Shown in pieces: positions 3,808 through 53,737 of a stretch of DNA of 54,020 nt. Numbering within the stretch: the stretch's first letter is position 1; the number at the start of each line of letters is the position of its first letter. The translations under genes were made by a program, and so were the position numbers. The notes beneath the pieces are model-generated. The model worked only from the letters and a program-made list of their open reading frames with translations. It was not told the DNA's origin and searched no databases. The stretch covers positions 1 through 54,020 of IMG/VR virus record IMGVR_UViG_3300044691_000045; one strand, written 5' to 3'. This stretch comes from a virus.

Positions 3808-3840
3808 AGCGGAATAGTACCATCCTGTCAACGAATCTAT

Positions 3841-6800
3841 CTAACGTTTCTTTCTACCGTGCGCGGCATACGTAGTCTGCTGCGCAAGCGACGTACCGCC
3901 AACGGCGGTAACTGTCAAGGCTAGACTGTCGCTGTGTGTCAATGAGCCAGAAACCGCCGTCCACAGACCTACAGCCGATACGCTGCTGCCTTGCCCACTC
4001 ACCAGCACAGCACTATTCGCTGGCACGTACACACCCGCATGGCCGCTGGTGATCGTGGCTGTGTAAGGCGCACCGGGCACTGGAGGCGTATAGCTTAACG
4101 GTGATCCTTGCAACAGCACATTCGTGTTTACCTTGTCAGTTAATCCAGACGCATCCGACAGTGTGATTATATTCGCAGACGATATAGCTGCTGGGAATGT
4201 AACAGCCATATTCATATTAGTTGTGGATTCGTTTAGAATCACAACTGCCTGTGACCCGTCTTGGTGCTGCAAGCCGTACGCTTTTACGTTGTTACCGCTA
4301 GACGTTATAGACGTAGATAGCATGCTAGCTTGCTGGTTACCTTGCGTAGCAAGCGTGAACAACAGCAAGCCTGCGTACTTTGGCTGCTCTTGGTATGTGT
4401 ATCCGTCACTGTCCTGAATAACTGAGTACGGGTTTGATGGCGCAGTTCCCATACCGCCTGAAATCCAATTGAGCATAACAGCGCCAGATTTTGCTACAAC
4501 AAAGTTAAAATCTATAGCGTACAGCGCAGAACTAAACGTGTTGGATACGCCGTCTAATCCTCCACTGTAGATGTCGTTTGTTTCGTTTAAAACCCACGCA
4601 TCCGGATAAGTTGCTTGCGTGGTATGGATGCCGCTAACCATAGAGTTAAAAAAGCCGTCTGATGCTGTAAAACTAAGCATCTCTGCTATAGTTCCAGTAG
4701 TAGGCCCGTCATGGTAAAAGTGTGACGTATCCCATAGCAACAGATCGGCATTGGCTGCCTCCATTGCTGTTGAATAAGTGCCAGCGCTCGTTGCAACTCC
4801 TGTTGACGGTCCTACAAACTGAGCACTAGGTACAGCGGCTTGAATAGCCAGCGCATACGTACGCCATGCTGTTGCAAATGAGGATGCTGTATAACCAGCG
4901 CCGGTATAGCCTGTGCCGTCTGGTTCGTTGCCTATCTCAAATGCAACCAACGATGATCCTAGCTTTGATGCAACGTAGGTTGCCTCCGCTACTGCGACAG
5001 ATGTGGTATTGCCTAGAAAGCGCAGACCGTACGTGCATTTCCATCCGGTAGCTGTAAGAAACGCAGCTAGGTTGTCCACGTCAGACTGTGAAATTTGCCC
5101 GGTTGTTTGTCCTGCTCCTGCTGGTGTCCATACCTCGTTATCGCCAGTAACTAAGCGCAGTGTGCCATTGCCTAAGCCTTTGAAATCAGCAATACCGCGT
5201 GCGTTGTTAGAAGCAAAGAAACGTGTACCTGCCATCAGCTTTGACTTAGTGTAAGACAAGCCTTGAAAGCCAGCCGGTATGTTGCCCACAACTGCGGTTG
5301 TCATGGTGACAGTGCCGCTCGCGGGTGACGACGGTACAGGCTGTAGATTGGTTGCCGCTGCTGCCGAAGTTAGGACAACAGCTTGCGTACCGTTCGCTGC
5401 TAGCGTGAATGAGCTAGGCGCGGCTGTTACCCCTGTGGGCAAACCAGCAACCGTTACTGCTGCTGTAGCTGCGAACGTTCCTAGAGCCGTAGATACTACG
5501 TTTACTGTTGCCGTAGAACCTACAGTCATTGTTAGCGTATCTGGCGTGACCGCTATAGTAAAGTCAGACGGCGCACCCGCGCACGTGCCTGATAGCTTTA
5601 CCGGCTCTGTACCTAGTACGAAAGTACCGCCTGTAATCGTTGTGACATTTCCGCGCAAGTCTGTCTTTGTGGGGTAGCAGGTTGATACAGTTGTATGACG
5701 CTCATAACCTGTATCAAACATAAACTGTACTGTGCTGCCATCGTTGTTAAGTGCAGTTGCAGACCATACAGAATTGTATTTTGCATGTGCGCCTGTTACA
5801 TCGTCAAAATGCGTTGTGAATCGATTGATATTGTTGATCCAACCTAGCACAGTTGCATGCGCTTGCCCTGCTGGATGGATGCCGACAGCGTTTGTAAACT
5901 GATGGTTGCTGCGGTAGCAATCTGCTGCATTGGTATAGCTTGATCCGATGTACTCTATACCAAAACACGCAACAGAGTGTAGCTCGATAACGCTGCAATC
6001 GCCTGTTTTTAAGTAAGGAGAGCAATACGCATTCGTTGTCTTAGAACGATACAATGTTAGACCGCCGCTACCTGTGGAATCAAACTGATACCAATTGCTA
6101 CCGATAGGACCGCAGCCACGCGTGCCGCAACCTGTACCGTACAATGGATTTTGTGAGTCAGCAGTTATCAGCGCTAGTTGTCCCATATAACCGCGCTGAT
6201 TTGTTGCTGTGAATGTCGCACCTGTTAGTGAATCGGTACGCGTGTCGTCCTGCATCTGATCATCGAAGTAATAGCCGCCCTCTGTTTCGAGCATAGGCGC
6301 ATCAGGCAGCATCCATGTTTTGCTCTGAATAACTGAGCGCATACGCTGTCTAATCTCGATAATGGAATAGTTGCAATGTTTGTTTGTAGACGTGATGTTG
6401 GAAGGCGTACACATGGAACTACCGAAACCTGTGCGATGAATATATGATCCAGTAGTATCTGTGTTACTACCACTACCGTCACCAGATATAGCGTTAGTAG
6501 CTCCTACACCGGGGAATACAACCTCTTGGTCGCTGTAGTCATGATAACTAATGCCTATACGTGGATTATTAGCAAGATCAGGCGCAACAATGTGAAATTG
6601 ATCCAGCAGCGAGTTCATGTTCTGATCGCACAGACCATTCGTGCCGCCTATCGAGTATTGCTTACCACCGCACGCCATTGATCCGATGTAGTATGTGCAA
6701 TCACCGCAATAAGCAAACACGATACGCGCTTCGTCTGCTTCCTGTGCAGCTAACCGCGTCCATGTACCGCTCTGTTGGCCCCATTGCTGCCCAGTATCGC

Positions 6801-7476
6801 TCTCGTTCACGCCCTCGAAATCATGAATACGGCATATGCCTACTAGCGGCGTTGCTGGTCTACTCTTTACACCGCACACTTTCTGCATAACAGCAGTATA
6901 AAACTCCTGCTTAATGCAGTCACCTTTTGCACCGCTAGGCGTATCGCCGGGAGCACCATTGACAGCCACATTACCGCAACTAATGTTAGCCATCGCTGTC
7001 TGTACTACGCCAGTATCGCTGTAATAACTATCGTATGGGCGCAACGATGGGTTATCGCGTGTATCACTGCAACCTGTTAGACCAAACGCGGAAGTAGACG
7101 CTGCGCCTGCCCAGTGCGGAATTGCAGAATCAGAAAATACAGTACGCGCGCCTATAGCTTCATTAGCAGGTATCCACGACGTAAGCGGATTTGCCTGCCC
7201 AGTAGCGGCAAGTAGATTACCGCTACCAGTCATGTTATACACGCCACGGCACGTATGTATGTTGTACTCAGCTTCGCCAGCATTCGCGCGGGAAAAATTA
7301 GGCGGAGCTATACCAACCTTGTTTATTGCATCCTGCAAGTCCAGCGGATGCAATACGTATACATCAAGCGGAGTTACGTTAGGATTGGTGCGAGGATCAA
7401 TAGGCACAGCCTGAGAAAAAGCAGCTATGCTGCAAAACAGCAATAGACTAGAAGTTATAAACTGCCGCAATTGCAC
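3841..7476 (-). CDS. Secreted two-domain glycoside hydrolase, GH79-like C-terminal half (1211 aa)
   Basis: The GTG start at 7476 has GGAGG five bases upstream and overlaps the previous gene by 29 bp. A Sec signal peptide (FITSSLLLFCSIAAFSQ) opens the protein. Residues about 30-620 form a cysteine-rich domain with candidate clan GH-A glutamates E225 (in GVNES) and E397/E399 (in LETEG). An Ig-like linker spans about 636-725. Residues about 735-1190 resemble GH79 beta-glucuronidases: acid/base E851 in EIGNEPD and nucleophile E965 in VLNETN, 114 residues apart, the same spacing I recall for the Acidobacterium capsulatum enzyme (E173/E287). A beta-sandwich closes the protein. It probably degrades capsular or extracellular polysaccharide. 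The N-terminal enzyme assignment is inference. Confidence 0.75.
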   Translation of the reverse strand: MQLRQFITSSLLLFCSIAAFSQAVPIDPRTNPNVTPLDVYVLHPLDLQDAINKVGIAPPNFSRANAGEAEYNIHTCRGVYNMTGSGNLLAATGQANPLTSWIPANEAIGARTVFSDSAIPHWAGAASTSAFGLTGCSDTRDNPSLRPYDSYYSDTGVVQTAMANISCGNVAVNGAPGDTPSGAKGDCIKQEFYTAVMQKVCGVKSRPATPLVGICRIHDFEGVNESDTGQQWGQQSGTWTRLAAQEADEARIVFAYCGDCTYYIGSMACGGKQYSIGGTNGLCDQNMNSLLDQFHIVAPDLANNPRIGISYHDYSDQEVVFPGVGATNAISGDGSGSNTDTTGSYIHRTGFGSSMCTPSNITSTNKHCNYSIIEIRQRMRSVIQSKTWMLPDAPMLETEGGYYFDDQMQDDTRTDSLTGATFTATNQRGYMGQLALITADSQNPLYGTGCGTRGCGPIGSNWYQFDSTGSGGLTLYRSKTTNAYCSPYLKTGDCSVIELHSVACFGIEYIGSSYTNAADCYRSNHQFTNAVGIHPAGQAHATVLGWINNINRFTTHFDDVTGAHAKYNSVWSATALNNDGSTVQFMFDTGYERHTTVSTCYPTKTDLRGNVTTITGGTFVLGTEPVKLSGTCAGAPSDFTIAVTPDTLTMTVGSTATVNVVSTALGTFAATAAVTVAGLPTGVTAAPSSFTLAANGTQAVVLTSAAAATNLQPVPSSPASGTVTMTTAVVGNIPAGFQGLSYTKSKLMAGTRFFASNNARGIADFKGLGNGTLRLVTGDNEVWTPAGAGQTTGQISQSDVDNLAAFLTATGWKCTYGLRFLGNTTSVAVAEATYVASKLGSSLVAFEIGNEPDGTGYTGAGYTASSFATAWRTYALAIQAAVPSAQFVGPSTGVATSAGTYSTAMEAANADLLLWDTSHFYHDGPTTGTIAEMLSFTASDGFFNSMVSGIHTTQATYPDAWVLNETNDIYSGGLDGVSNTFSSALYAIDFNFVVAKSGAVMLNWISGGMGTAPSNPYSVIQDSDGYTYQEQPKYAGLLLFTLATQGNQQASMLSTSITSSGNNVKAYGLQHQDGSQAVVILNESTTNMNMAVTFPAAISSANIITLSDASGLTDKVNTNVLLQGSPLSYTPPVPGAPYTATITSGHAGVYVPANSAVLVSGQGSSVSAVGLWTAVSGSLTHSDSLALTVTAVGGTSLAQQTTYAAHGRKKR

Positions 7477-9805
7477 CGTTGCCTCCGTCAGTACCTAGTG
7501 TAGTGCCGCAAACTGTTGTGCTGTGTAATCCGCCGTTTGCTGTCACCTGAGTAGCGAAAAGATTGTTGCCGAAGTTATAGCCCATTGCTTCTAGCAGTAT
7601 GTTACCAGCGCCGCCGCCTGCGCCGGATAGCGATGTTCCGCCTGCGCACGGTCCACCGGGACCACCATCCGCACTAATCCGTCCGGTAGAACTGATAAGT
7701 AAGAATGTCGTTTTGATGTAGACAAAACCGCTAGGTTGACCGCCGAAGCCGCCTAGATGCGTACCGTCACCAAAGCCGGGAGCACCCTGCGCGCCGAAGC
7801 CGTGCTGTATCATCTCGCGCAGCAATGGCCCTGCGCCGGGGATCGTGAGGCCCGTAGTAGCGCTCATTCCCGCAACAGCAGAGGTACCACCGCCTAGCGG
7901 CGTGGATTGGTTAGGGTATTGCCGCCTTCCGCCGCCGTTGATCGCTGTAGTGCCGCCGCCAGCGCCGCCCTGCCCACCGGCAAGCGGAGTGAATGCAGAG
8001 CTTGTGCTTGTCTGTCCTGAAACCGTGCCAGCAATTGCGCCCGTTGCTGCTAGGCTACACGTACCGGATACTGCCGCAGGCCACTGCGATGTAAATGCAA
8101 TACCGCCAAGAGATGCAATGGTTGCAGATGGAACGTGGCTATTTATAATTCCAGCACCGTAGCACAGGAATGATGAAAAGTGTGCATAGCCATCTATGAA
8201 TGCTGTTGTACCGTTGACAGTGAATGAGCCGCTTAGACCATTACCGCCGTTTGCCATGATTGCAAACGGAGATGTACCATACATGAATGGCGCAGCAAAC
8301 AGTGTAAACGTGCTTCCATTGTAGCCAACATCCCCAAGCGCAACAACCTGTGGCGATGCTACCGACCATCCAGCAGTAGTTGTGCCGTCGCCTGTTGTAC
8401 TAGTCATCCACAACTGTGTAGACATATCGAACCAATACGCAGGATTAGAGACAGTACCGGAATTGATCGGCGTGTTTATCTCAAATTGCACAATTGGCGC
8501 AGTTGTTGTATCTATCCACGTAAGACTGCCGCAACTTCCATCTGACTGAGCAATAAAAGATGCAAACGGAAAGTGCATGCCAGCAATAGCACTGGGAGTT
8601 ACAGTATTAGTTCCTACCCAACTACAAGTGCCACTGCTATTATTCATAACTAGCGGCTGCGTAGATGTTCCGCGTTCGATAAACGTATTACCGCTGTAGC
8701 GTAAGTAATCTGGAATGCCGAGTGTGGGCGACGTTGTTACAGGTCCGGATACTACAGAATTTGCAACAGTAGAGTACAGCGCAGAGGACGCGCCTAGCGT
8801 CTGGTTAGACGGATTGTAGGTTAGCGGCGGTTGTGCCACAGCTACACCCGGCGTACCTTGCGCACCGGGCGCACCCGGCGTACCGTTAGCGCCATTGGCA
8901 CCGTTCGCACCAGCAGGCCCAGCCGGTATGCCCACATTCAGGGCGTACAGCGTGCCGCTGGGATTAGTTACGCTGATAGTCGGTGACGCACCATTGGCTA
9001 GTCCTATTGCAGTGCCAGCCTGAAAGGTAGGTGTTACGCCTGCGCTACCTGCTGGTCCTGTTGGCCCGGTTGCGCCTGTTGCGCCTGTTGCGCCGGTTGC
9101 TCCTGCTGTACCTGCTGGTATAGATACATCTAACGCAAACACGTGTGTGCTTACAGTGCGTACAGTAACAGACGGCAATGTACCCGCACTTGTCTGTGTA
9201 GTTGTACCGCTAATAAACGATGGCGGAGTTGTACCGCTTATACCTGCTATCTGCGCAGCAACATACGCCTGATCCGCAAGCGGAGAACCACCGGAGCTAG
9301 TAAGCGCACCCTTCAGTGTTGCACCATTCAACAGTGTTGTAACTGTGTCTGATGTGATAGTAGTGGTACCGTTGGATAGATTCAGGCCGTACGTACCAGC
9401 TACCGGCTGTGATCCGTTGTAAGTTTGCAGAATAATCGTACCGGCTAATAGATCAGTTGGCGACGTAGCCGCCTGTGATGCCGTACCGCTGGGAGATGTG
9501 CAATAGTTCCACGTAAGTGGCGCAAACGTTTGTGTAGCGAATGTAAACGTTTGCTTATTGAATACGTCAATCAAACGCACAGTGTACGTACCTGCTTGCA
9601 CGATCATGCGCGGAGATACAGTACCGTTTATTACTGCTGCGTATTGGGTTAGTCCCGCACCTGTGGGAGTAACAACAAGAGCGCCTTGCTGTTCCAATCC
9701 AGACGCGCCAGTAACGCAGCCATCGCCAAGCACTGTTACACTGGCTTGTCCAAAGAGCAAAGGTGCGCAAAGCGCTAGATATAAGCATAAAACAATTTTA
9801 CGCAT
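7448..9805 (-). CDS. Collagen-like and glycine-rich tail fibre with Sec signal peptide (785 aa)
   Basis: AGGAG stands 7 bases before the ATG at 9805. The N-terminus is a signal peptide (MRKIVLCLYLALCAPLLFG, then Q). Two tandem modules follow, each a short beta segment ending in ALDVSIPAG or ALNVGIPAG and then Gly-X-Y repeats (GATGATGPTGPAG; GANGTPGAPGAQG), a layout common in trimeric phage fibres. The middle is beta-rich and the last 200 residues contain polyglycine runs (GGQGGAGGG, GGAGGGAG) reminiscent of glycine-rich receptor-binding adhesins such as T-even gp38. It is probably a receptor-binding fibre. The exact tip function is inferred. Confidence 0.75.
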   Translation of the reverse strand: MRKIVLCLYLALCAPLLFGQASVTVLGDGCVTGASGLEQQGALVVTPTGAGLTQYAAVINGTVSPRMIVQAGTYTVRLIDVFNKQTFTFATQTFAPLTWNYCTSPSGTASQAATSPTDLLAGTIILQTYNGSQPVAGTYGLNLSNGTTTITSDTVTTLLNGATLKGALTSSGGSPLADQAYVAAQIAGISGTTPPSFISGTTTQTSAGTLPSVTVRTVSTHVFALDVSIPAGTAGATGATGATGATGPTGPAGSAGVTPTFQAGTAIGLANGASPTISVTNPSGTLYALNVGIPAGPAGANGANGANGTPGAPGAQGTPGVAVAQPPLTYNPSNQTLGASSALYSTVANSVVSGPVTTSPTLGIPDYLRYSGNTFIERGTSTQPLVMNNSSGTCSWVGTNTVTPSAIAGMHFPFASFIAQSDGSCGSLTWIDTTTAPIVQFEINTPINSGTVSNPAYWFDMSTQLWMTSTTGDGTTTAGWSVASPQVVALGDVGYNGSTFTLFAAPFMYGTSPFAIMANGGNGLSGSFTVNGTTAFIDGYAHFSSFLCYGAGIINSHVPSATIASLGGIAFTSQWPAAVSGTCSLAATGAIAGTVSGQTSTSSAFTPLAGGQGGAGGGTTAINGGGRRQYPNQSTPLGGGTSAVAGMSATTGLTIPGAGPLLREMIQHGFGAQGAPGFGDGTHLGGFGGQPSGFVYIKTTFLLISSTGRISADGGPGGPCAGGTSLSGAGGGAGNILLEAMGYNFGNNLFATQVTANGGLHSTTVCGTTLGTDGGNGAIAAVYNF

Positions 9806-9814
9806 GAAATGCTC

Positions 9815-10522
9815 CTAGATCGGTCGTGATATTTTGTGCGGTACTGCTGCTGTGGTTGTTTCTTTGAAAGCAATGCCCATGAATGCGCCTGTATTGGCTG
9901 TTGTAGGGGCATAAGGTAACGCTGTAGATGCTGTAGTGTTAATTGCTCCTGTATACGCATTGCCGCTGGCAGGAAAATCACCTGGCGATGTAAATGGAGC
10001 GCTAGCGCCGGTAATAGAAGCATTCCACTGTACACACTGCACAATCACATCATTAGTGCCGGTTAGAGTCAACGCGACATTAGTAGGGGCAGCAGACGTA
10101 CTTTGACTTCTCAGACCGGAGGTATCGTAAATAGCAGGTCCGGAGGTTGTTGAATACTCAAAAATTTCAAATTCGCCGCCGTTTGTTACACTTGTGGTAG
10201 CTGTAATTGTCGTGTTACCGCTAGTGGATGATAGCGTGTAATAGGCATCGATAGCATTGTTGGTTACTAATGCGTTGCAACTTGGGCAATGCACCCAAGT
10301 CATTGCCGTTCCGCCTGTGCTAGACATCGCAGTCATGGCACCTGAAGACGACGGGATAGTACGTACGGCAACGATCAGATGACTCGCGCCTGTCGCAGTC
10401 GTGGTTACGGCACAGGTTGTAGCAGTGGGGCAACTGGAATTTATCGGATGCTGTACAAGCGTCCATGTAGCACGCGCTTGTGCTGATACCAACAACAAAA
10501 GTGCGAATATAGGTATACGCAT
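9815..10522 (-). CDS. Secreted beta-rich fibre-associated protein (235 aa)
   Basis: A Sec signal peptide (MRIPIFALLLLVSAQARA) precedes a threonine/serine-rich, strand-rich body with paired cysteines (SSCPTATTCAV, HCPSCNAL). The start codon shares one base with the upstream stop (TGATG), so the two genes are translationally coupled. The repeated short strands resemble jelly-roll or lectin-like domains found in fibre accessory proteins, but I cannot name a family. It sits between two other signal-peptide fibre genes, suggesting a shared surface role. Confidence 0.6.
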   Translation of the reverse strand: MRIPIFALLLLVSAQARATWTLVQHPINSSCPTATTCAVTTTATGASHLIVAVRTIPSSSGAMTAMSSTGGTAMTWVHCPSCNALVTNNAIDAYYTLSSTSGNTTITATTSVTNGGEFEIFEYSTTSGPAIYDTSGLRSQSTSAAPTNVALTLTGTNDVIVQCVQWNASITGASAPFTSPGDFPASGNAYTGAINTTASTALPYAPTTANTGAFMGIAFKETTTAAVPHKISRPI

Positions 10523-11166
10523 CAGTTAGCCTGCACAGTTAACGCGCGTGGAATTGTAAGCTGTACGCCAAGCACATACGCTGCTGTGGCTGTGTCTGTG
10601 CCGCGCACTACCTTTACTTTCATCAAACCACCGGCAAGGCATCCCGTAGTGGTCATGCTAGTAAGCGTAGCTGTCCACATCTGATTGCCTACCGTGCCTA
10701 GCGTTATTGTGCTCATAGCTTGCACCGTATTAAAAGCAACATCATCGGAGGTTGATCCGTCGCCTTTTTCACATGATGTTGCTAGCTGCATAATGATGGT
10801 ATGCCCACTCGTTACATCCGACGTTGCGACATAGAGCCTAGCATTCAGCGCAGTTGTGCTATCCCAATCCAGCGGCAACGCTACAGTAAACTGTGCCGAG
10901 TTTGTATCTGCAAAGTTTAGCGCCGCATCCAGCGTGTTAGCTCCGATGCGCGTAGTAGCGGCTGGACCGCCCGATGCGGGTATATTCCAGCTTGACGACG
11001 CGGTACCGGAGATAATACCAGCAGAGGGTACATACTTAGTATCCGGCACAGTTGCTATGTTTGCCATAGGCAGCTTGTTCTTAACTTGCGAAGTCAAGTC
11101 TACCTTGTTCTGTGCGAGCGCACACATGCTACACAACAGCAACAGACTAGTAACGATACCACGCAT
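10522..11166 (-). CDS. Secreted beta-sandwich fibre-associated protein (214 aa)
   Basis: The ATG at 11166 has AGGAG ten bases upstream and overlaps the previous gene by 20 bp. The N-terminus is a signal peptide (MRGIVTSLLLLCSMCALAQ). The body (ALNFADTNSAQFTVALPLDWD, LYVATSDVTSGHTIIMQLAT) looks like the jelly-roll domain often seen in phage fibre and adsorption proteins, with alternating strands and few helices. It has two central cysteines, one in ATSCEKGDG. No specific family is recognised; the role in host binding is inferred from its neighbours. Confidence 0.6.
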   Translation of the reverse strand: MRGIVTSLLLLCSMCALAQNKVDLTSQVKNKLPMANIATVPDTKYVPSAGIISGTASSSWNIPASGGPAATTRIGANTLDAALNFADTNSAQFTVALPLDWDSTTALNARLYVATSDVTSGHTIIMQLATSCEKGDGSTSDDVAFNTVQAMSTITLGTVGNQMWTATLTSMTTTGCLAGGLMKVKVVRGTDTATAAYVLGVQLTIPRALTVQAN

Positions 11167-12824: not shown

Positions 12825-13298
12825 TTAGTAGATACCGTAGGTAATGAGTGCTTGCGCGCCCGTTGGTGCTACTGACATATTCAGGCACAATCCATTGCCC
12901 ACAGGAACAGACAAGCCGCCTCCCATAGTAAATGATTCCTGATAGGTGTCTGTGACAGATGCCGTGCCTAGAAACAGCGGCGTTACTGTCGTGGTTCCGG
13001 TAACGCACGCTGCGCCTGTACCAGCGGCAAGGCCGAAGTTAGCAGGCGTGGCCGTCTGCTTTACTTTGAGGGTAACTGTGCAGATGTGGATGGATTGACG
13101 CGATGGAACCGTAGTAGGTACAGCGCCGTTGTACAGCGTAGTAGCTCCGGTAGGCGCAGTGACAAGCTGTGTCTCGCCTGCGGCTACGCTGGACACTGCT
13201 ACAGCATAAGGGCAGATGGCAGAGCCACCATTGCCGCGCTGCGCGAGAACCGCGCTGGGGAGGAGTAAGAGTGCAGCAGCAGCTAGAAACAGGCGCAT
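12825..13298 (-). CDS. Secreted beta-rich protein, first gene of fibre operon (157 aa)
   Basis: GGAG lies 7 bases before the ATG at 13298. A clear signal peptide (MRLFLAAAALLLLPSAVLAQ) is followed by a cysteine-containing beta-rich domain (AICPYAVAV, SIHICTVTLKV, GLCLNMSVAPTGAQALITYG). The pattern, ending in a short strand, is like small phage decoration or receptor-binding domains. It is the promoter-proximal gene of the run that ends at 365, just after a terminator at 13337-13361. The mature protein would be about 137 residues. Confidence 0.6.
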   Translation of the reverse strand: MRLFLAAAALLLLPSAVLAQRGNGGSAICPYAVAVSSVAAGETQLVTAPTGATTLYNGAVPTTVPSRQSIHICTVTLKVKQTATPANFGLAAGTGAACVTGTTTVTPLFLGTASVTDTYQESFTMGGGLSVPVGNGLCLNMSVAPTGAQALITYGIY

Positions 13299-14277: not shown

Positions 14278-14823
14278 TTAGGAATCGCGCCAGACACGCA
14301 CGCCCTTAACGCCGTTCTCTTCCACCGACCGTGTAGAGAACTTGCGGTCATACGCAAGCACCTGTACGGTCTTGCCTTTGGCATTCACGCGCGTCTGTCC
14401 GGTTGGTTTGCCGAAGCGCCGCGCTGCCGATGAAACGATGCTCGGAAACGTCTTTTGCACGTTGGGCATCGCTGCCGAAACCGGGACAAAGAACGACTGT
14501 CCGGGCTGCATCTGTGCGAACGGATACATGCTGTTGCCAGCACCGCCGCGCCGCATCGCTGGCTTTACGATACCGCTGTCCAGCGTAAACACAGGCCGTT
14601 CCTTCGGTGCGCTCTGCTCGGAACTTGCGCCCGATACGGTGGAGATGTCCAGCGCGCGCACGCCGATGTGACCGTCCGGCAAACCGGCAACCGCCGCATT
14701 CAACTCTACCTTTTCGGGATCGAGTTCGTTCGCCTTGTCTTGTGGCAGAACGGCATAGCCATTCGCCTTCGTCTGCTCAACAACTGTTGCGTACAGCGAT
14801 GCCTTTTCTTTCTTTGAAAGCAT
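14278..14823 (-). CDS. GQSF-domain protein, large paralogue (181 aa)
   Basis: GGAG lies 8 bases before the ATG at 14823. The N-terminal third is charged and helical (MLSKKEKASLYATVVEQTKA). The centre contains MYPFAQMQPGQSFFVP, a motif (YP-W/F, x2, GQSF, x, V/I, P) also present in the 81-aa protein at 18776-19021 and in reduced form at 23345-23530. The C-terminal part (SSAARRFGKPTGQTRVNAKG) looks basic and could bind nucleic acid. Small proteins with this motif are widespread in phages and of unknown function. It is likely an accessory regulator, by inference. Confidence 0.55.
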   Translation of the reverse strand: MLSKKEKASLYATVVEQTKANGYAVLPQDKANELDPEKVELNAAVAGLPDGHIGVRALDISTVSGASSEQSAPKERPVFTLDSGIVKPAMRRGGAGNSMYPFAQMQPGQSFFVPVSAAMPNVQKTFPSIVSSAARRFGKPTGQTRVNAKGKTVQVLAYDRKFSTRSVEENGVKGVRVWRDS

Positions 14824-16072: not shown

Positions 16073-16744
16073 CTATTCTGGTGCTTGTTCGGCAATTGGT
16101 TGGTACCCGCTATCCATCTTCACATCACGCGGATTGTTGTACGTGTCTGTTGTGGGTACATAGCGAGCATCGTAATGTTCTCTCTGGCTTTTATGCACAT
16201 CGTACAATGCACGTTCCAATTCAGCATTCTTATGCGCCAGAACATCGGCTCTGGTTTGTTCGGCGTGTTTCTCATCCGCCAATTCAAATGCACGCTTGGT
16301 TACGGTTTCCAGTTCTTTACGCACTATGTTGTAGCGATCATCGCGAATAAAGGCTTGTCGCCAGTAGCCTTCGCAGGCTGCTGTTTGCTTGTTGATTACC
16401 GCTTTCAGCTTGTCGCCAAGACTTGTACGCGATGCATGCGCTTCGCTGGCGTACTGCTCTGCAAAGGTATTGCGTTCTTTGAGCACGTCAATCAGTGTGC
16501 TGAGATACAGCACAATGCCTAGCAGAAGTCCGGCAAGGATCAAACCCAAAATCATGAAGACAAACGGCACGCTGCCGAACCCAATATCAATCGTGGTACC
16601 GCCGCTGTTGTGTGCCTGCTGCATCCAGTTAGCATCTACATTGCCTTGCACAATGCCTTCGTGGATAGAGTTGTAAATCGTGGTTTGTAACTTGTCAAGA
16701 AAAGCGTTGTTAAGCTGGATGTAACTTTCAACTGCTGTCTGCAT
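16073..16744 (-). CDS. Membrane-anchored coiled-coil protein (223 aa)
   Basis: The ATG at 16744 has CCGGAGGC 8 bases upstream. An earlier ATG at 16792 lies inside the previous gene. After a 60-residue polar region a long membrane helix is visible at about residues 58-84 (FVFMILGLILAGLLLGIVLY), then about 130 residues of coiled coil rich in Glu, Lys and Arg (KRAFELADEKHAEQTRADVL). The architecture suggests a protein that tethers something to the inner membrane. No family recognised. The gene overlaps the LuxR-type gene upstream by 17 bp. Confidence 0.55.
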   Translation of the reverse strand: MQTAVESYIQLNNAFLDKLQTTIYNSIHEGIVQGNVDANWMQQAHNSGGTTIDIGFGSVPFVFMILGLILAGLLLGIVLYLSTLIDVLKERNTFAEQYASEAHASRTSLGDKLKAVINKQTAACEGYWRQAFIRDDRYNIVRKELETVTKRAFELADEKHAEQTRADVLAHKNAELERALYDVHKSQREHYDARYVPTTDTYNNPRDVKMDSGYQPIAEQAPE

Positions 16745-17012
16745 TCGTGTTGCCTCCGGTTGATTGTAGTCGTTGTCGTTTCTTGGTTTCACGTGCTACG
16801 CGCGTATGATACGCATATAAGCCAAGTTGTAATCGAGTAGTGAATCCGGTTCTACGCAAAGATTCTAGTACGTGATTGCGTACAGTAAAGTTGCTCAGGT
16901 TCAGTAACAGTGCTATGTCTTTATCACAGTAACCGTAACTAAGCCAGAACATGACGCATCTCTGTGCTGGTGTTGGTGGCAATCGGGGGATGATTGGCGG
17001 TGTTAGTGTCAT
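16728..17012 (-). CDS. Stand-alone LuxR/GerE-type helix-turn-helix protein (94 aa)
   Basis: The sequence LTPPIIPRLPPTPAQRCVMF leads into GYCDKDIALLLNLSNFTVRN and HVLESLRRTGFTTRLQLGLY, which matches the four-helix DNA-binding domain of LuxR/FixJ regulators (T-x-AQR, G-x2-x-KDIA-x-L, T-V-x-N-H, L-x-R-x-G). No sensor or receiver domain is present, so the whole protein is essentially the DNA-binding unit. The start shares ATGA with the stop of the upstream gene; a longer frame exists but overlaps that gene. It is the clearest transcription-factor fold in the phage and could control the adjacent control region, which is inference. Confidence 0.75.
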   Translation of the reverse strand: MTLTPPIIPRLPPTPAQRCVMFWLSYGYCDKDIALLLNLSNFTVRNHVLESLRRTGFTTRLQLGLYAYHTRVARETKKRQRLQSTGGNTNADSS

Positions 17013-17206
17013 TGTGCATTCTTTACTGCGGTTGCTGCCTTGACCCAAGCACGCGACCGTGTAGAGCCTATCCCGGCAAGCGGTGTGCTGCCGTCATAGA
17101 TACAATACACAGCGACTAGCTTACCCACAAGTACATTGCACTTTGCACGTGGGTATATCTCGCGTACCACGATCTTGGCTTTGTCGGTTCGTTTGGTATA
17201 GGCCAC
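17009..17206 (-). CDS. Hypothetical basic protein (65 aa)
   Basis: The start is a GTG at 17206 that shares one base with the upstream TAG stop, with AAGGAAAG upstream. The protein is basic at both ends (AYTKRTDKAKIVVREIYPRA; GSTRSRAWVKAATAVKNAQ) with a hydrophobic centre (LVGKLVAVYCIYDG). I do not recognise it. It ends in ATGA, coupling it to the LuxR-type gene. Confidence 0.5.
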   Translation of the reverse strand: MAYTKRTDKAKIVVREIYPRAKCNVLVGKLVAVYCIYDGSTPLAGIGSTRSRAWVKAATAVKNAQ

Positions 17207-17723: not shown

Positions 17724-17882
17724 CTAGCGCCACTTCCTGCTGACGGCATAGGTAGCAAGTAACAGTGCCTGCAATAGCAGCAATGATGCAGCAAACGAGG
17801 TATAGGACATCTCCAGCCAGTAGTACCGGCTGTATAGGATGATCCATCCAGTGTGCGCGATGTGGAACAGGTAGATATGCAT
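17724..17882 (-). CDS. Two-segment small membrane protein (52 aa)
   Basis: The start at 17882 forms TAATG with the upstream stop, so I chose it over a longer frame. The sequence is hydrophobic almost throughout: MHIYLFHIAHTGWIILYSRY and SYTSFAASLLLLQALLLATY are two candidate membrane helices, ending in a basic tail (SRKWR). Function unknown. It may be a superinfection or membrane-modifying peptide. Confidence 0.5.
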   Translation of the reverse strand: MHIYLFHIAHTGWIILYSRYYWLEMSYTSFAASLLLLQALLLATYAVSRKWR

Positions 17883-18106
17883 TAGGTTGTCAACTCTGCG
17901 TATGCATACATCCATGCCTGATCCGCTCCGATGTTGCTACAGGCAAGTAGCTTGCCATGCGGTCTGTCTTGGTTGACTACGCCATCATAGACCGCCCATT
18001 GCATCTCATCTACGGTGCAGTGCGCGCCTGCACGTAGCTGTACAACTCGCTCTTGATAGGGTATGGCCTTGTACGGGATGCGTACGATGTGTGTTGCCTG
18101 ATCCAT
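17882..18106 (-). CDS. Hypothetical protein (74 aa)
   Basis: The ATG at 18106 has CGGAGG five bases upstream, the genome's typical strong site, and is preferred over an upstream ATG. The product (MDQATHIVRIPYKAIPYQER) is a small alpha/beta protein with no recognised motif. It lies downstream of one parS-like palindrome and two TTGACA boxes, so it may head its own transcript. Confidence 0.55.
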   Translation of the reverse strand: MDQATHIVRIPYKAIPYQERVVQLRAGAHCTVDEMQWAVYDGVVNQDRPHGKLLACSNIGADQAWMYAYAELTT

Positions 18107-18146
18107 AGTGCCTCCGATGTACGGTGTATCTGTGTTATGTGTCAAA

Positions 18147-18234: not shown

Positions 18235-18250
18235 TGTTCCACGTGGAACA
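18235..18250. promoter_or_regulatory. parS: parS-like palindrome, copy 1
   Basis: TGTTCCACGTGGAACA is a perfect 16-bp palindrome and matches the parS consensus (TGTTNCACGTGNAACA) bound by chromosomal-type ParB proteins. It directly abuts the stop codon of the gene at 18251-18391. An identical copy lies at 19500-19515. No ParA or ParB gene is visible in this genome. The match is seen; binding by a host or phage ParB is inference. Confidence 0.8.
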
Positions 18251-18391
18251 CTAGCGCCGAAAGCAGTCAATCTCTCTGCCCACATAGCAGCAGATGAGCG
18301 CCACAGCTACGCTCCAGTGGGCATGGCGTGCGACAGTGCCTAACAGTGAGATGGTGAGGATGTACCGCAGCAAGGTACCGTGTACGCTCAT
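18251..18391 (-). CDS. Tiny membrane protein (46 aa)
   Basis: This frame is short but starts at an ATGA overlap with the upstream stop, as most genes here do. The product (MSVHGTLLRYILTISLLGTV, then ARHAHWSVAVALICCYVGRE) has two short hydrophobic stretches. Its TAG stop is immediately followed by the parS-like palindrome. Function unknown; gene-hood rests on coupling and composition. Confidence 0.45.
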   Translation of the reverse strand: MSVHGTLLRYILTISLLGTVARHAHWSVAVALICCYVGREIDCFRR

Positions 18392-18603
18392 GGCTGCACC
18401 TTAGAGCCGTGCTCTAGTGCCTCGGCAATTGCTACGCCTAGACGTGCGCGTGTGAAGCGCAGTACATAACTGTAATAGTCTTTGTTTAGGTACAGCGCCA
18501 GTACAGAAGCATGCACAGGTATACGCAAGTTTAGCTCTGGACAGTGATAGGCATACTCGTTGTATGTGCTGCCTAGCTTGGTCACTTCCACGTAGATTGT
18601 CAT
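18388..18603 (-). CDS. Hypothetical protein (71 aa)
   Basis: AAGG stands 7 bases before the ATG at 18603, which also overlaps the upstream stop as ATGA. The protein (MTIYVEVTKLGSTYNEYAYH) is a compact alpha/beta sequence with a helical C-terminus (ARLGVAIAEALEHGSKVQP). No family recognised. Confidence 0.55.
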   Translation of the reverse strand: MTIYVEVTKLGSTYNEYAYHCPELNLRIPVHASVLALYLNKDYYSYVLRFTRARLGVAIAEALEHGSKVQP

Positions 18604-18779
18604 AGTTTACCTTTCTGCCGCTTGCATAGCAGGCAAGTACCAGACATAGACTGTGGATTGCACGTGCTGCACTGGTACAAGCCGCATGCCTTACAGCGTC
18701 TGCGCACTGCTCTATTGTTGTGCTGTATCTCAGCACGTTTGCATGCTTCGCAAACTAATATATAACATTGGCGTCTCAT
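18600..18779 (-). CDS. Four-knuckle zinc-binding mini-protein (59 aa)
   Basis: Read directly from the minus strand, this frame starts at 18779 with an ATGA overlap with the upstream gene and ends with an ATGA overlap with the downstream gene, so its position in the chain is exact. It holds four CxxC pairs: C10/C13, C30/C33, C37/C40 and C49/C52 (for example CKACGLYQCSTC), enough for two zinc ions. It is rich in Arg and Lys, so nucleic-acid binding is plausible. Function unknown. Confidence 0.7.
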   Translation of the reverse strand: MRRQCYILVCEACKRAEIQHNNRAVRRRCKACGLYQCSTCNPQSMSGTCLLCKRQKGKL

Positions 18780-19021
18780 GCTGTTCTGCCCACAACGATA
18801 GTTGTGCCATCTGCGCCCATGTACGCGCGGTAGGTATTGCCTGTTTCCTTTGACTTGCGGTAGCAGTACGCCTGAATGCCTGCGAGCATTGGCACACCGT
18901 TAGTGTAGGGAATCACGAACGATTGCCCAACAGCAAGCGCGTTCCAAGGATACTTGCCGGTGCGACCGCGTTTCTGCGCCAATTGCGTCACATCGTAATC
19001 GTGTACGGTATAATCTGCCAT
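18776..19021 (-). CDS. GQSF-domain protein, small paralogue (81 aa)
   Basis: It contains GKYPWNALAVGQSFVIP, the same motif as the larger protein at 14278-14823. The rest (AYCYRKSKETGNTYRAYMGA) is basic and could contact DNA. It is the first gene of the minus-strand chain leaving the control region, with GAGG ten bases upstream of the ATG and a TATAAT-like box at 19123-19118. Being first in an early operon suggests a regulatory role, but this is inference. Confidence 0.55.
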   Translation of the reverse strand: MADYTVHDYDVTQLAQKRGRTGKYPWNALAVGQSFVIPYTNGVPMLAGIQAYCYRKSKETGNTYRAYMGADGTTIVVGRTA

Positions 19022-19240
19022 TTTCTATTGCCTCTCTGGTGCCGAATATGCCCGGAATATTCCGTTAGGCTGGTAACCATTAAACCAAAGTTTTGTCTAT
19101 ATTGGAATAGCGTATAGATTATATCTGCTTACTATAGGTCATAAGTGGTAGAGAGCATCCTATCTGTAGTAGTATATGTAGTAGTGTATAGATACAGATT
19201 AAGTACAGCAGGATCAGCAACTTAGCGGCCAAAACAGCAT
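19022..19240. other. A/T-rich divergent intergenic region, left part
   Basis: No gene. The sequence is A/T-rich around 19081-19200 with short repeats of TATAG, TAGTAG and GTATA. On the minus strand TATAAT occurs at 19123-19118, upstream of the gene at 19021, but without a good -35 box. I read it as the promoter part of the divergent control region between the two early operons. Confidence 0.4.
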
Positions 19241-19378
19241 GTGTCGGAAGGCGCTTGCCAAATATTCAAGTGTGTGTATATGACGAAACCTTCCGACACT
19301 GCGCCAGATGACCCTAACTCTTACATTCTAATCAACTTACAGTGTCGGAGGGCATTTCCGACAGATGCGCCAGATAAC
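19241..19378. repeat. Iterated TGTCGGA element (four copies in two inverted pairs)
   Basis: TGTCGGA occurs at 19242-19248 and 19343-19349, and its complement TCCGACA at 19292-19298 and 19357-19363. The outer pair extends to GTGTCGGAAGG/CCTTCCGACAC. After each inverted copy comes TGCGCCAGAT (19300-19309 and 19366-19375) and then a further AC, making a direct repeat of about 21 bases. The layout fits an operator or iteron array bound by a dimeric protein, placed centrally between divergent operons. Confidence 0.6.
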
Positions 19379-19380
19379 GT

Positions 19381-19570
19381 AACATCACAAAGTAACCAAA
19401 AAGTAACCAAAAGCGAACAATAAGCGAATGAATTGTCACACAATTGTCACCAACACATGAACAACCAACTTTGCGCACAACTAACACGCAACTTTGCATT
19501 GTTCCACGTGGAACATTACGCAAATCAAAGCGCAATCAACACACAATCAAAGCGCGAACAAAGCGCAATT
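19381..19570. other. A/C-biased direct-repeat block, candidate replication origin
   Basis: The plus strand here is strikingly poor in G. It holds tandem AAGTAACCAAA copies (19389-19412), two AATTGTCAC (19432-19450), two AACTTTGC (19477-19498) and two AATCAAAGCGC (19523-19555). A parS-like palindrome sits inside it at 19500-19515. Strand bias, short direct repeats and location between divergent early operons are typical of replication origins. No experimental support exists here, so this is a candidate. Confidence 0.45.
19500..19515. promoter_or_regulatory. parS: parS-like palindrome, copy 2
   Basis: TGTTCCACGTGGAACA again, identical in all 16 positions to 18235-18250. The two copies are 1,265 bp apart and flank the first five genes of the minus-strand chain. 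This one lies in the A/C-rich repeat block. Two exact copies of a 16-mer in non-coding DNA are not expected by chance. Confidence 0.8.
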
Positions 19571-19666
19571 GGTTACTAAAGATATGTAGACAAGCACATA
19601 CTTGTGGGCATACATTAGACACAGTACCGTTATGCTTCAGAATCGCAGTACCGGAGGACTAGCAAG

Positions 19667-19900
19667 ATGCGCAACGTTAACCAAGTAGATTTTGCCGCAA
19701 TCACCAGCACAACGAAGTTTGCACATGACGCGGTAGTAACTGATGGGCGCATCTCCGTATCATTCACGATTCCTTACACGCGCACATGCTTCGATGTTGC
19801 AATCGATGGCACAGTCATAGGACGCGCGCACACCGTCAAAACAGCATTGGCACTAGTCAACACAGCGCGCAAGGCTATCCTCACATCTTGCGGCAAGTAA
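19667..19900 (+). CDS. Hypothetical protein, first gene of the plus-strand early cluster (77 aa)
   Basis: ACCGGAGG lies 9 bases upstream of the ATG. The sequence (VVTDGRISVSFTIPYTRTCF) looks like a small beta-sheet domain followed by a helix (HTVKTALALVNTARKAIL). The helix resembles the one in the protein at 20334-20591 (TLDQAISVVNIARFLTG), so the two may be distant paralogues. Function unknown. It is transcribed away from the control region. Confidence 0.55.
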   Translation: MRNVNQVDFAAITSTTKFAHDAVVTDGRISVSFTIPYTRTCFDVAIDGTVIGRAHTVKTALALVNTARKAILTSCGK

Positions 19901-23344: not shown

Positions 23345-23530
23345 ATGCCAGTTGATAGGCAATTCAGAGACTTGAGTATTGGGCAGTCATTTGATTTTAT
23401 TTCGCCCATCGCTACGCACAACAGCTTTTACCTTACCTGCACAAAGATCAGCGCGCGCCAGTACCGTGACGAACGCGGCACCGTACACACTGTCGGCAGT
23501 GTTAAGGCAAACGTATACCACGTTAAATAA
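23345..23530 (+). CDS. Short GQSF-motif protein (61 aa)
   Basis: ACCGGAGGCC precedes the ATG. It contains FRDLSIGQSFDFISP, a reduced version of the YP-x-GQSF motif seen at 14278-14823 and 18776-19021, and a basic C-terminal half (ISARQYRDERGTVHTVGSVK). It may be a third, diverged paralogue, which would put copies in both early operons. Function unknown. Confidence 0.5.
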   Translation: MPVDRQFRDLSIGQSFDFISPIATHNSFYLTCTKISARQYRDERGTVHTVGSVKANVYHVK

Positions 23531-52207: not shown

Positions 52208-53737
52208 TCAGTAATAAGTAAAACTGAAATTTGCTTTGTTCGCTAAACGATTCGCGCCTTTTAGCACGCGATACCGTACTTGGTCATACGCATGATCTTC
52301 GGCGTGTGTATCCACATCGTCAATTTTCAAAGGATCACGCGGCAGTATTGGCAGTGTAGCAATAGATGCTCTACAGTGTGCCATAAAATAAATAGCTGGT
52401 CCTTCGTGCTTTACTGCGGCTTGTAAACGATCACGCAGCAGTTGCAAGCCATTACGACGCGAGCCGGGAGACTTGTCGCTTTCCTGCCAACGCACGCCCT
52501 TGTCAGCCATCTTTTTCTCTATGGTATCTACGTCAGACTCGCGCACATCGCGTATCTGATTATCTGCGGGGCCGGGGCGCGGCTGCCGTTGTATCAGCTT
52601 ATCGCGCAGTAAGCGTATCTCTTCGTTAATCACCATTTGCGCAACATCAGGCGCAGACATCCGCAAGCCTTCGTTGTTGCCAACACCTGTACTTAGATAC
52701 AGTTCTCCGCACTGAATTAGAGAACCTTTTTCCGGGCAGAATATTTTACCATCCGGCAAAGTTGCCTCTTCGCCATTTGCTTCTGCCCACCAACCTATTG
52801 CGCATGGATGCGAACTACCCCAATCTAGAGAACGGTCAACATACCAATCTATAGGAACTTGGAATGTAGGCATGATGTGTATAGCTGGCTTCCATAGATC
52901 ATCTATCGCACCACCGGATACAACATCCCAGCTACCCTCTAGCCATGACTTGCGCAAGTTCTCATTGTTCGCGCATAGTTGCATGAGTCCAGCGATGTAC
53001 GTTGCGCTGAGATACTTGTTTTCCCTGAATGAGCCAAAGATAGCTATTTGCGTGCGTTCGATGTCTACCAGCTTACCGCCTTGTTGCGGATCAGGTACGT
53101 CTTTGAACACGGTACGCACTACGGTACCAGAAGGCGCAGGATCGATAAACCGTTGCTTTACTTGCGCGTGGCCTATGCCTTCAGAGTTAGTAGTAGCAAA
53201 CGTTTTTAATGGAATAGGCGGCAACGTGTAATTGCCGCTTTTGTCCTTTGGGCTATTCTTTTCTTGCGTCCATGACGAACGATTGCAACTCATCATCAAA
53301 TCGAACGCTTTTAAGTTAGGCCACTTGGTTAACTCGTTCCACGCAATAAACGGATATTCGTGGCCGTGATAGTTAGAATAATCGCGCTCATCAAATACAG
53401 CGCGCAGCAATAATTCTTCACCTGTAGGCCACAACCATTTGTACTCATTACCCGCAAGAAACTTTACGCCATCATCGAAAGCGTAATAAACGCGCTTCAT
53501 CTTATCTAAGATGTCGTCTAGGTGCTTGTATTCACGATCTATTACGATGCCGCGCCAGAACCTACCGTAGCCTATGCCCACATGCTTACGGAATGCCATC
53601 ATCTCGGCTTCTGTCTTGCCGGGGCCGCGTGTGCCGTGATAGAGAGTTACATCAGCGCGTGAATCCAGCGCGAGCGTTTGGGAACCGGGTAGCGGTTCCC
53701 AAACAACTTTTGTAACTGGCTCAGTTAATAGAGGCAT
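52208..53737 (-). CDS. terL: Terminase large subunit (509 aa)
   Basis: The ATPase domain has Walker A GTRGPGKT at residues 35-42 and a Walker B-like FIAWNE at 130-135. The nuclease domain includes DRSLDWGSSHPCAIGWW, with the aspartate typical of the RNase H-like metal site, and later DVRESDVDTIEKKMADKG. The packaging motor cuts concatemers and pumps DNA into the head. The start overlaps the small subunit gene by 17 bases. The large subunit sits first in the late operon, as usual. Length matches the 450-600 residues of its family. Confidence 0.9.
   Translation of the reverse strand: MPLLTEPVTKVVWEPLPGSQTLALDSRADVTLYHGTRGPGKTEAEMMAFRKHVGIGYGRFWRGIVIDREYKHLDDILDKMKRVYYAFDDGVKFLAGNEYKWLWPTGEELLLRAVFDERDYSNYHGHEYPFIAWNELTKWPNLKAFDLMMSCNRSSWTQEKNSPKDKSGNYTLPPIPLKTFATTNSEGIGHAQVKQRFIDPAPSGTVVRTVFKDVPDPQQGGKLVDIERTQIAIFGSFRENKYLSATYIAGLMQLCANNENLRKSWLEGSWDVVSGGAIDDLWKPAIHIMPTFQVPIDWYVDRSLDWGSSHPCAIGWWAEANGEEATLPDGKIFCPEKGSLIQCGELYLSTGVGNNEGLRMSAPDVAQMVINEEIRLLRDKLIQRQPRPGPADNQIRDVRESDVDTIEKKMADKGVRWQESDKSPGSRRNGLQLLRDRLQAAVKHEGPAIYFMAHCRASIATLPILPRDPLKIDDVDTHAEDHAYDQVRYRVLKGANRLANKANFSFTYY

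What the first reader, a model, noticed from the sequence alone, without database searches (positions are those of the whole stretch)
18235..19515. Two identical parS palindromes in a phage with no visible parAB
The 16-mer TGTTCCACGTGGAACA occurs at 18235-18250 and 19500-19515, perfectly palindromic and identical. It matches the parS consensus bound by chromosomal ParB. The copies flank the first five genes of one early operon and sit in non-coding DNA, one next to a stop codon and one within an A/C-rich repeat block. I find no ParA or ParB gene. The phage may borrow the host ParB to place, stabilise or replicate its DNA (a plasmid-like state), or to silence or boost the enclosed genes by ParB spreading. 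Alternatively a phage-encoded regulator could bind them.
Basis: partly seen in the sequence, partly recalled or inferred. Interest (0 to 1): 0.85.

Follow-up and report, generated by a model that had tools for sequence, protein, structure and literature searches.

The report
Orphan parS centromere sites in phage
This virus of a soil-type bacterium carries two perfect copies of the DNA tag that bacteria use to mark and separate their own chromosomes, but no gene to read it; the same kind of orphan tag turns up in many unrelated bacterial viruses, which suggests that viruses recruit the host's chromosome-sorting protein.

Summary
Confirmed: TGTTCCACGTGGAACA occurs exactly twice (18235-18250, 19500-19515), with no third site within 3 mismatches. 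It is identical to chromosomal parS2 and parS3 of Pseudomonas aeruginosa. About 1e-5 copies are expected by chance. One site abuts the end of a four-gene leftward early operon; the other lies in the 645-bp divergent control region upstream of it. No ParB_N or ParA-family domain is detectable. The window looks like a complete (127-bp terminal repeat) virulent-type siphophage, probably of an Acidobacteriota host. Relatives at 54-62% terminase identity lack the sites, and no closer relative was found. The feature is nonetheless not a fluke: in viral contigs this 16-mer occurs at least 119 times (0, 2, 4 and 54 for four control palindromes) and is strongly enriched between genes. Cultured phages of Pseudomonas, Vibrio, Ruegeria, Bacillus, Lactobacillus, Gordonia and Tunturiibacter carry one to six such sites without ParB, and off-consensus sites vary only at positions that ParB tolerates. 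Best reading: orphan parS sites that recruit the host's chromosomal ParB onto the early/replication control region. What ParB then does (DNA placement or SMC loading, gene silencing, or decoy) is not settled. I found no published report in the papers searched.

The parts
18235..18250 (.). parS copy 1, TGTTCCACGTGGAACA, abutting the stop codon of the last gene of the leftward four-gene unit; 89 bp upstream of the start of the next leftward gene (17882-18145)
19500..19515 (.). parS copy 2, TGTTCCACGTGGAACA, in the divergent intergenic control region
19022..19666 (.). 645-bp divergent intergenic region, 42% GC against about 50% for the genome; probable early promoter hub and candidate replication origin (inferred)
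19523..19566 (+). 11-bp iteron-like direct repeats (AATCAAAGCGC and variants) 8 bp from parS copy 2
19241..19363 (.). second set of inverted repeats, TGTCGGAAGG / CCTTCCGACA, four half-sites; candidate operators for a phage regulator
18776..19021 (-). first gene of the leftward unit, 81 aa, GQSF-type small protein (phrog_10287 / phrog_7597)
18600..18779 (-). 59-aa Cys-rich, zinc-ribbon-like ORF
18388..18603 (-). 71-aa ORF, no family
18251..18391 (-). 46-aa hydrophobic ORF; its TAG stop abuts parS copy 1
19667..19900 (+). first gene of the rightward early unit, 77 aa
21507..22505 (+). DUF932 early protein; distant homologues also sit on parS-bearing viral contigs L069, L114, L105
24092..26371 (-). 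primase/helicase (DUF3987, NrS-1-type helix-bundle domain)
52208..53737 (-). terminase large subunit, 54-62% identical to virulent siphophage relatives

Best explanation
The two palindromes are orphan, chromosomal-type parS sites. After injection the host's own ParB recognises them, closes as a CTP clamp, slides outwards and coats the early/replication control region (about 18-20 kb of the window). The ParB-coated DNA is then handled as a host origin region would be: it can contact host ParA and load host SMC-condensin, so that entering or newly replicated phage DNA is positioned, compacted or disentangled by host machinery. Shown: the sequence, its exact identity to a proven parS, its intergenic placement, the absence of ParA/ParB genes, and the recurrence of such sites in unrelated phages. 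Inferred: that this phage's host ParB binds (about 0.8), and that the main gain is DNA placement/organisation rather than transcription control or titration (about 0.5).
For: Exact identity to P. aeruginosa parS2/parS3 and P. putida parS. Two copies, about 1e-5 expected. No ParB_N or AAA_31 in the window. In 50 parS-bearing viral records, the window included, no ParB. Cultured phages: 58 records with the exact 16-mer where about 0.5 is expected; Pseudomonas phages carry clusters of up to six sites, and all eight single-mismatch sites fall at ParB-tolerated positions (p about 6e-7). Canonical parS clusters in Ruegeria, Bacillus, Gordonia, Lactobacillus and Vibrio phages, no ParB. Of the 10 Klebsiella-phage records (hosts without chromosomal ParABS, established knowledge) none is annotated as between genes: 8 lie inside genes, 2 records are unannotated. 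An Acidobacteriota phage, Tunturi_2, has one exact site at its divergent early junction.
Against: The host is not known and no Acidobacteriota chromosome could be scanned for its parS. Terminase relatives (50 records, 54-62% identity) lack the exact site; one has TGTTTCACGTGAAACA. Tunturi_1, nearly identical to Tunturi_2 beside the site, lacks it, so the site is dispensable or turns over fast. No binding data. No lysogeny or plasmid-maintenance genes, so stable partition over cell generations is not an obvious need.
Confidence: 0.55

Rival explanations
1. Host ParB binds, but the purpose is transcriptional: the ParB clamp and its spreading repress or time the divergent early promoters and the four-gene leftward unit bracketed by the sites.
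For: Sites bracket the first leftward unit and one sits between divergent operons. At native level P. aeruginosa ParB represses genes next to the intergenic parS3/parS4 (PMC5521831); plasmid ParB proteins silence genes several kb from parS.
Against: In other phages orphan sites lie at convergent gene ends or in terminal repeats, not regularly at promoters.
Confidence: 0.2
2. Decoy: multiplying phage parS copies titrate host ParB and disturb host chromosome segregation or division during infection (a parS incompatibility effect).
For: SGI1 uses two parS copies both to stabilise itself and to destabilise its helper (PMC10954446); parS copy number rises with phage replication.
Against: ParB is non-essential in several hosts with such phages, for instance P. 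aeruginosa and P. putida; only two sites in the window.
Confidence: 0.1
3. The palindromes are operators for a phage-encoded regulator (for example the LuxR-type HTH protein at 16728-17048) that happens to share parS sequence.
For: Two palindromic sites around an early operon are typical of operators; a GerE-domain protein is encoded nearby.
Against: Exact identity of all 8 half-site bases to parS; the same 16-mer and its ParB-tolerated variants recur in phages with unrelated gene content. The region has a separate palindrome set, TGTCGGA/TCCGACA, better placed as operators.
Confidence: 0.06
4. They are hairpins of intrinsic transcription terminators.
For: Site 1 follows a stop codon directly and scores as terminator-like on the minus strand; RNA hairpin of -6.3 kcal/mol.
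Against: Three terminator-like hits found in the region where 2.4 are expected by chance. Site 2 sits in a divergent region with no T run on either strand, and intergenic viral parS sites show only a modest excess of T runs over random intergenic points (12 of 47 against 14.5%). A hairpin does not require the parS sequence; control palindromes are rarer.
Confidence: 0.05
5. Chance, or leftover host origin-region DNA picked up by recombination, without function.
For: Relatives lack the sites and they turn over between sister phages.
Against: Two exact copies at 1e-5 expected; no host gene around them; population-wide intergenic enrichment.
Confidence: 0.04

Closest known systems
Chromosomal ParABS, parS sites of Pseudomonas aeruginosa/putida (PMC4368675, PMC7022226)
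   Same: Identical 16-mer, several copies within a few kb, near a replication control region.
   Different: Here the sites are on a phage with no parA/parB in cis; binding not shown.
SGI1 parS mimics that hijack the IncC plasmid ParABS (PMC10954446)
   Same: Mobile element with exactly two parS-like sites and no ParAB of its own, using another replicon's ParB.
   Different: SGI1 mimics a plasmid parS; here the match is to the chromosomal ParB site, in a virulent-type phage. SGI1 binding and stabilisation are proven, here inferred.
Phage-encoded partition systems (P1; RedRock-type cluster A parABS mycobacteriophages, PMC7157519)
   Same: Centromere sites on phage DNA.
   Different: Those phages encode ParA and ParB and live as extrachromosomal prophages; RedRock parS is a set of 8-bp direct repeats. 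None of this is present here.
Lacachita-type phages with ParB but no ParA (PMC10286716)
   Same: An incomplete par system suggested to rely on the host.
   Different: Mirror image: they have a ParB-like gene and no ParA; here parS and no ParB.

Membership tests
Chromosomal-type parS site | 16-bp palindrome TGTTYCACGTGRAACA with intact CACGTG core | tested here: met
   Exact 16/16, identical to P. aeruginosa parS2/parS3
Chromosomal-type parS site | Bound by a chromosomal ParB of the cell it enters | not testable with these tools
   Needs host ParB and binding assay; host only inferred
Chromosomal-type parS site | Same parS present in the host chromosome near oriC | not tested
   No Acidobacteriota genome handle could be reached; kin of a virus record are not drawn
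Self-contained ParABS partition cassette | ParB gene (ParB_N) in cis | tested here: not met
   No PF02195 in six frames
Self-contained ParABS partition cassette | ParA ATPase gene in cis | tested here: not met
   No PF13614 in six frames
Orphan parS hijacking another replicon's ParABS (SGI1-like) | parS present, parAB absent | tested here: met
Orphan parS hijacking another replicon's ParABS (SGI1-like) | Foreign ParB binds and stabilises the element | not testable with these tools
   Experiment required
Intrinsic terminator | GC-rich hairpin followed by a T run downstream of a gene | tested here: inconclusive
   Site 1 weakly fits on the minus strand, site 2 does not

The most novel reading that the evidence does not exclude
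Orphan chromosomal parS is a widespread, repeatedly acquired device of virulent phages of ParABS-bearing hosts: host ParB clamps loaded on early or first-injected phage DNA recruit host ParA/SMC (or shield or silence that DNA), so phage genomes pass as host origin regions during takeover.
Probability: 0.45. Interest if true: 0.88.

Novelty: new variant of a known kind. Interest (0 to 1): 0.74.

Why it matters
ParB-parS is thought of as a chromosome and plasmid centromere. If phages that do not live as plasmids carry host-matched parS sites to draw in host ParB, then ParB, and through it ParA and SMC, becomes a direct player in phage infection. That is testable at once in lab systems with cultured phages (P. 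putida phages Amme-3/KoPa-4, P. aeruginosa phage XD2 or KPP25) using parB and smc mutants. It would also explain clusters of palindromes in early regions and terminal repeats of phages that have no assigned function.

Tried and rejected
Primase and DNA polymerase as single-sequence probes of IMG/VR found no close relatives, so conservation at short distance could not be tested. Terminase relatives: no exact sites in 50 records. Tail-fibre probe of bacterial genomes gave nothing. Terminase probe of bacterial genomes gave 42 loci, none labelled Acidobacteriota, so the host's chromosomal parS could not be checked. Terminator reading tested and rejected as the main explanation. Rfam: no RNA family; no tRNA. 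I first took a count of 0 for one control palindrome as the background; further controls gave 54, 2 and 4, so the enrichment claim rests on all four and on intergenic placement. Literature: no paper found that reports these sites in phages; the exact 16-mer appears in four held papers, all by title on bacterial chromosomes or plasmids; the key survey of parS sites (Livny 2007) is not held.

Full report
OBSERVATION. The 16-mer TGTTCCACGTGGAACA occurs twice, at 18235-18250 and 19500-19515, and nothing else in the window comes within three mismatches. At the window's base composition 1.3e-5 exact copies are expected. The record is an IMG/VR virus sequence of 54,020 bp whose first and last 127 bases are identical, so it is probably a complete genome. 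Leftward genes end at 19021 and rightward genes begin at 19667; AT skew changes sign there. Site 1 touches the stop codon of the fourth leftward gene; site 2 lies inside the 645-bp divergent region, which is AT-richer (42% GC), carries 11-bp iteron-like repeats 8 bp from the site, and holds a separate set of inverted repeats TGTCGGA/TCCGACA.

IDENTITY. P. aeruginosa parS2 and parS3 are exactly this sequence (PMC4368675); P. putida parS is the same (PMC7022226). The window has no ParB_N domain and no AAA_31 ParA domain in any frame. The larger ORFs searched are replication and structural genes: DUF3987 primase, Sak4-like AAA_24 ATPase, DUF669, ResIII helicase, family A polymerase, RusA, DUF932 and a LuxR-type HTH protein. 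No integrase or partition gene was recognised. Terminase (54-62%) and polymerase (about 45%) relatives are siphophages of Variovorax, Sphingomonas, Pseudomonas and others.

HOST. Not known. Pointers to Acidobacteriota: several virion-region proteins of the window start with signal peptides ending in A-Q, as do two proteins of the Acidobacteriota phage Tunturi_2, while three other relatives show none in their virion genes; and the small protein 23345-23530 has only three homologues among cultured phages, two of them Tunturi_1 and Tunturi_2 (the third is a Rhizobium phage). Tunturi_2 itself has one exact parS at the junction of its leftward and rightward early genes.

CONSERVATION. No close relative was found. 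Of 50 records related through terminase, none has the exact site and one has TGTTTCACGTGAAACA. Tunturi_1, 89% or more identical to Tunturi_2 beside the site, lacks it. So the site is gained and lost quickly. This counts against a universal essential role, not against a function.

IS IT A PATTERN? Four control palindromes give 0, 54, 2 and 4. The 54-hit control is almost always inside genes (94% in ORFs of 100 aa or more), the parS stretches much less often (55%), random positions 80%; Fisher p = 6e-8. Fifty records (the window and 49 mostly intergenic parS contigs) have no ParB. Some pair the C/G and T/A versions of parS within 24 bp (G056, G058, G091), variants whose common denominator is ParB recognition. 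Among 50,697 phage records, 58 contain the exact 16-mer where about 0.5 is expected: of the 17 Pseudomonas-phage records 14 are annotated as intergenic, 2 fall in a hypothetical gene and 1 is unannotated; of the 10 Klebsiella-phage records 8 lie inside genes and 2 are unannotated. Enterobacterales lack chromosomal ParABS (established knowledge), so this is a natural control, although the Klebsiella set is largely one jumbo-phage family. Whole-record scans show clusters: SYP six, UAVern four, XD2 four, Amme-3 three, a Xenohaliotis phage three, viral contig G051 five; Vibrio phi 3 two within each terminal repeat, Ruegeria DSS3P8 three, Bacillus BcoS-136 four, Lactobacillus Bromius three, Gordonia Woes two. 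All eight single-mismatch sites in the Pseudomonas phages differ only at the outer base or the C/T position, where known parS sites vary (chance about 6e-7). Of 23 records tested only BUCTxx99 has ParB_N hits. Caveats: some IMG/VR contigs may be host DNA, for instance G060, which also has a ParA; records are redundant within phage families; some parS-variant hits lie in genes (Listeria, Arthrobacter, phi29-like).

MECHANISM. Known ParB biology (PMC7333895): ParB nucleates at parS, becomes a CTP-dependent sliding clamp, stimulates ParA, recruits SMC, and can silence neighbours; P. aeruginosa ParB at native level represses genes next to intergenic parS3/parS4 (PMC5521831). A mobile element with two orphan parS mimics, SGI1, is proven to use a foreign ParABS (PMC10954446). 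The most economical reading is therefore recruitment of host ParB to the early/replication control region (about 0.8). For the outcome I favour placement or organisation of phage DNA through ParA/SMC (about 0.5), then early-gene repression (0.2), then titration (0.1). Terminators and a look-alike operator are possible but weak.

NOVELTY. Phage-encoded ParABS and a plasmid-parS hijacker are known. Orphan chromosomal-type parS in phages without ParAB was not found in the held literature, but subscription papers, including the 2007 parS survey, could not be read. I class it as a new variant of a known kind.

Noticed in passing
window 1963-3831, 3841-7476, 7448-9805, 10522-11166, 12825-13298 (-): Several virion-region proteins begin with bacterial-type signal peptides ending in A-Q/S-Q; two proteins of Acidobacteriota phage Tunturi_2 do the same. 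Phage tail-region proteins with signal peptides are unusual and unexplained.
   Followed up: partly
window 14278-14823 (-), 18776-19021 (-), 23345-23530 (+): Three small proteins share a GQSF motif; two of them match phrog_7597, so they may be paralogues scattered over both early operons. Function unknown.
   Followed up: partly
window 19241-19363: Inverted repeats TGTCGGAAGG/CCTTCCGACA, four half-sites, in the divergent region: candidate operators of a phage regulator.
   Followed up: no
window 16728-17048 (-): LuxR/GerE-type HTH protein of 106 aa in the leftward early operon.
   Followed up: no
L342 (Vibrio phage phi 3), L308 (Pseudomonas phage SYP), L343 (phiPsa374): parS sites sit in terminal repeats or the extreme left end, in phi 3 beside its A1/A2 pre-early genes, possibly the first DNA to enter the cell.
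   Followed up: partly
Microviridae records: Several ssDNA gut microviruses carry exact parS 16-mers, many between genes; meaning unknown, could be terminator hairpins.
   Followed up: no
L004 / G060 (84 kb, about 23% GC): Two parS sites plus a strong ParA (E = 5.5e-69) but no ParB_N; may be host DNA misfiled as viral.
   Followed up: no
L359, L360 (Stenotrophomonas phage BUCTxx99, 34175-35064): Two adjacent ParB_N-domain ORFs in a phage with one parS site 15 kb away.
   Followed up: no
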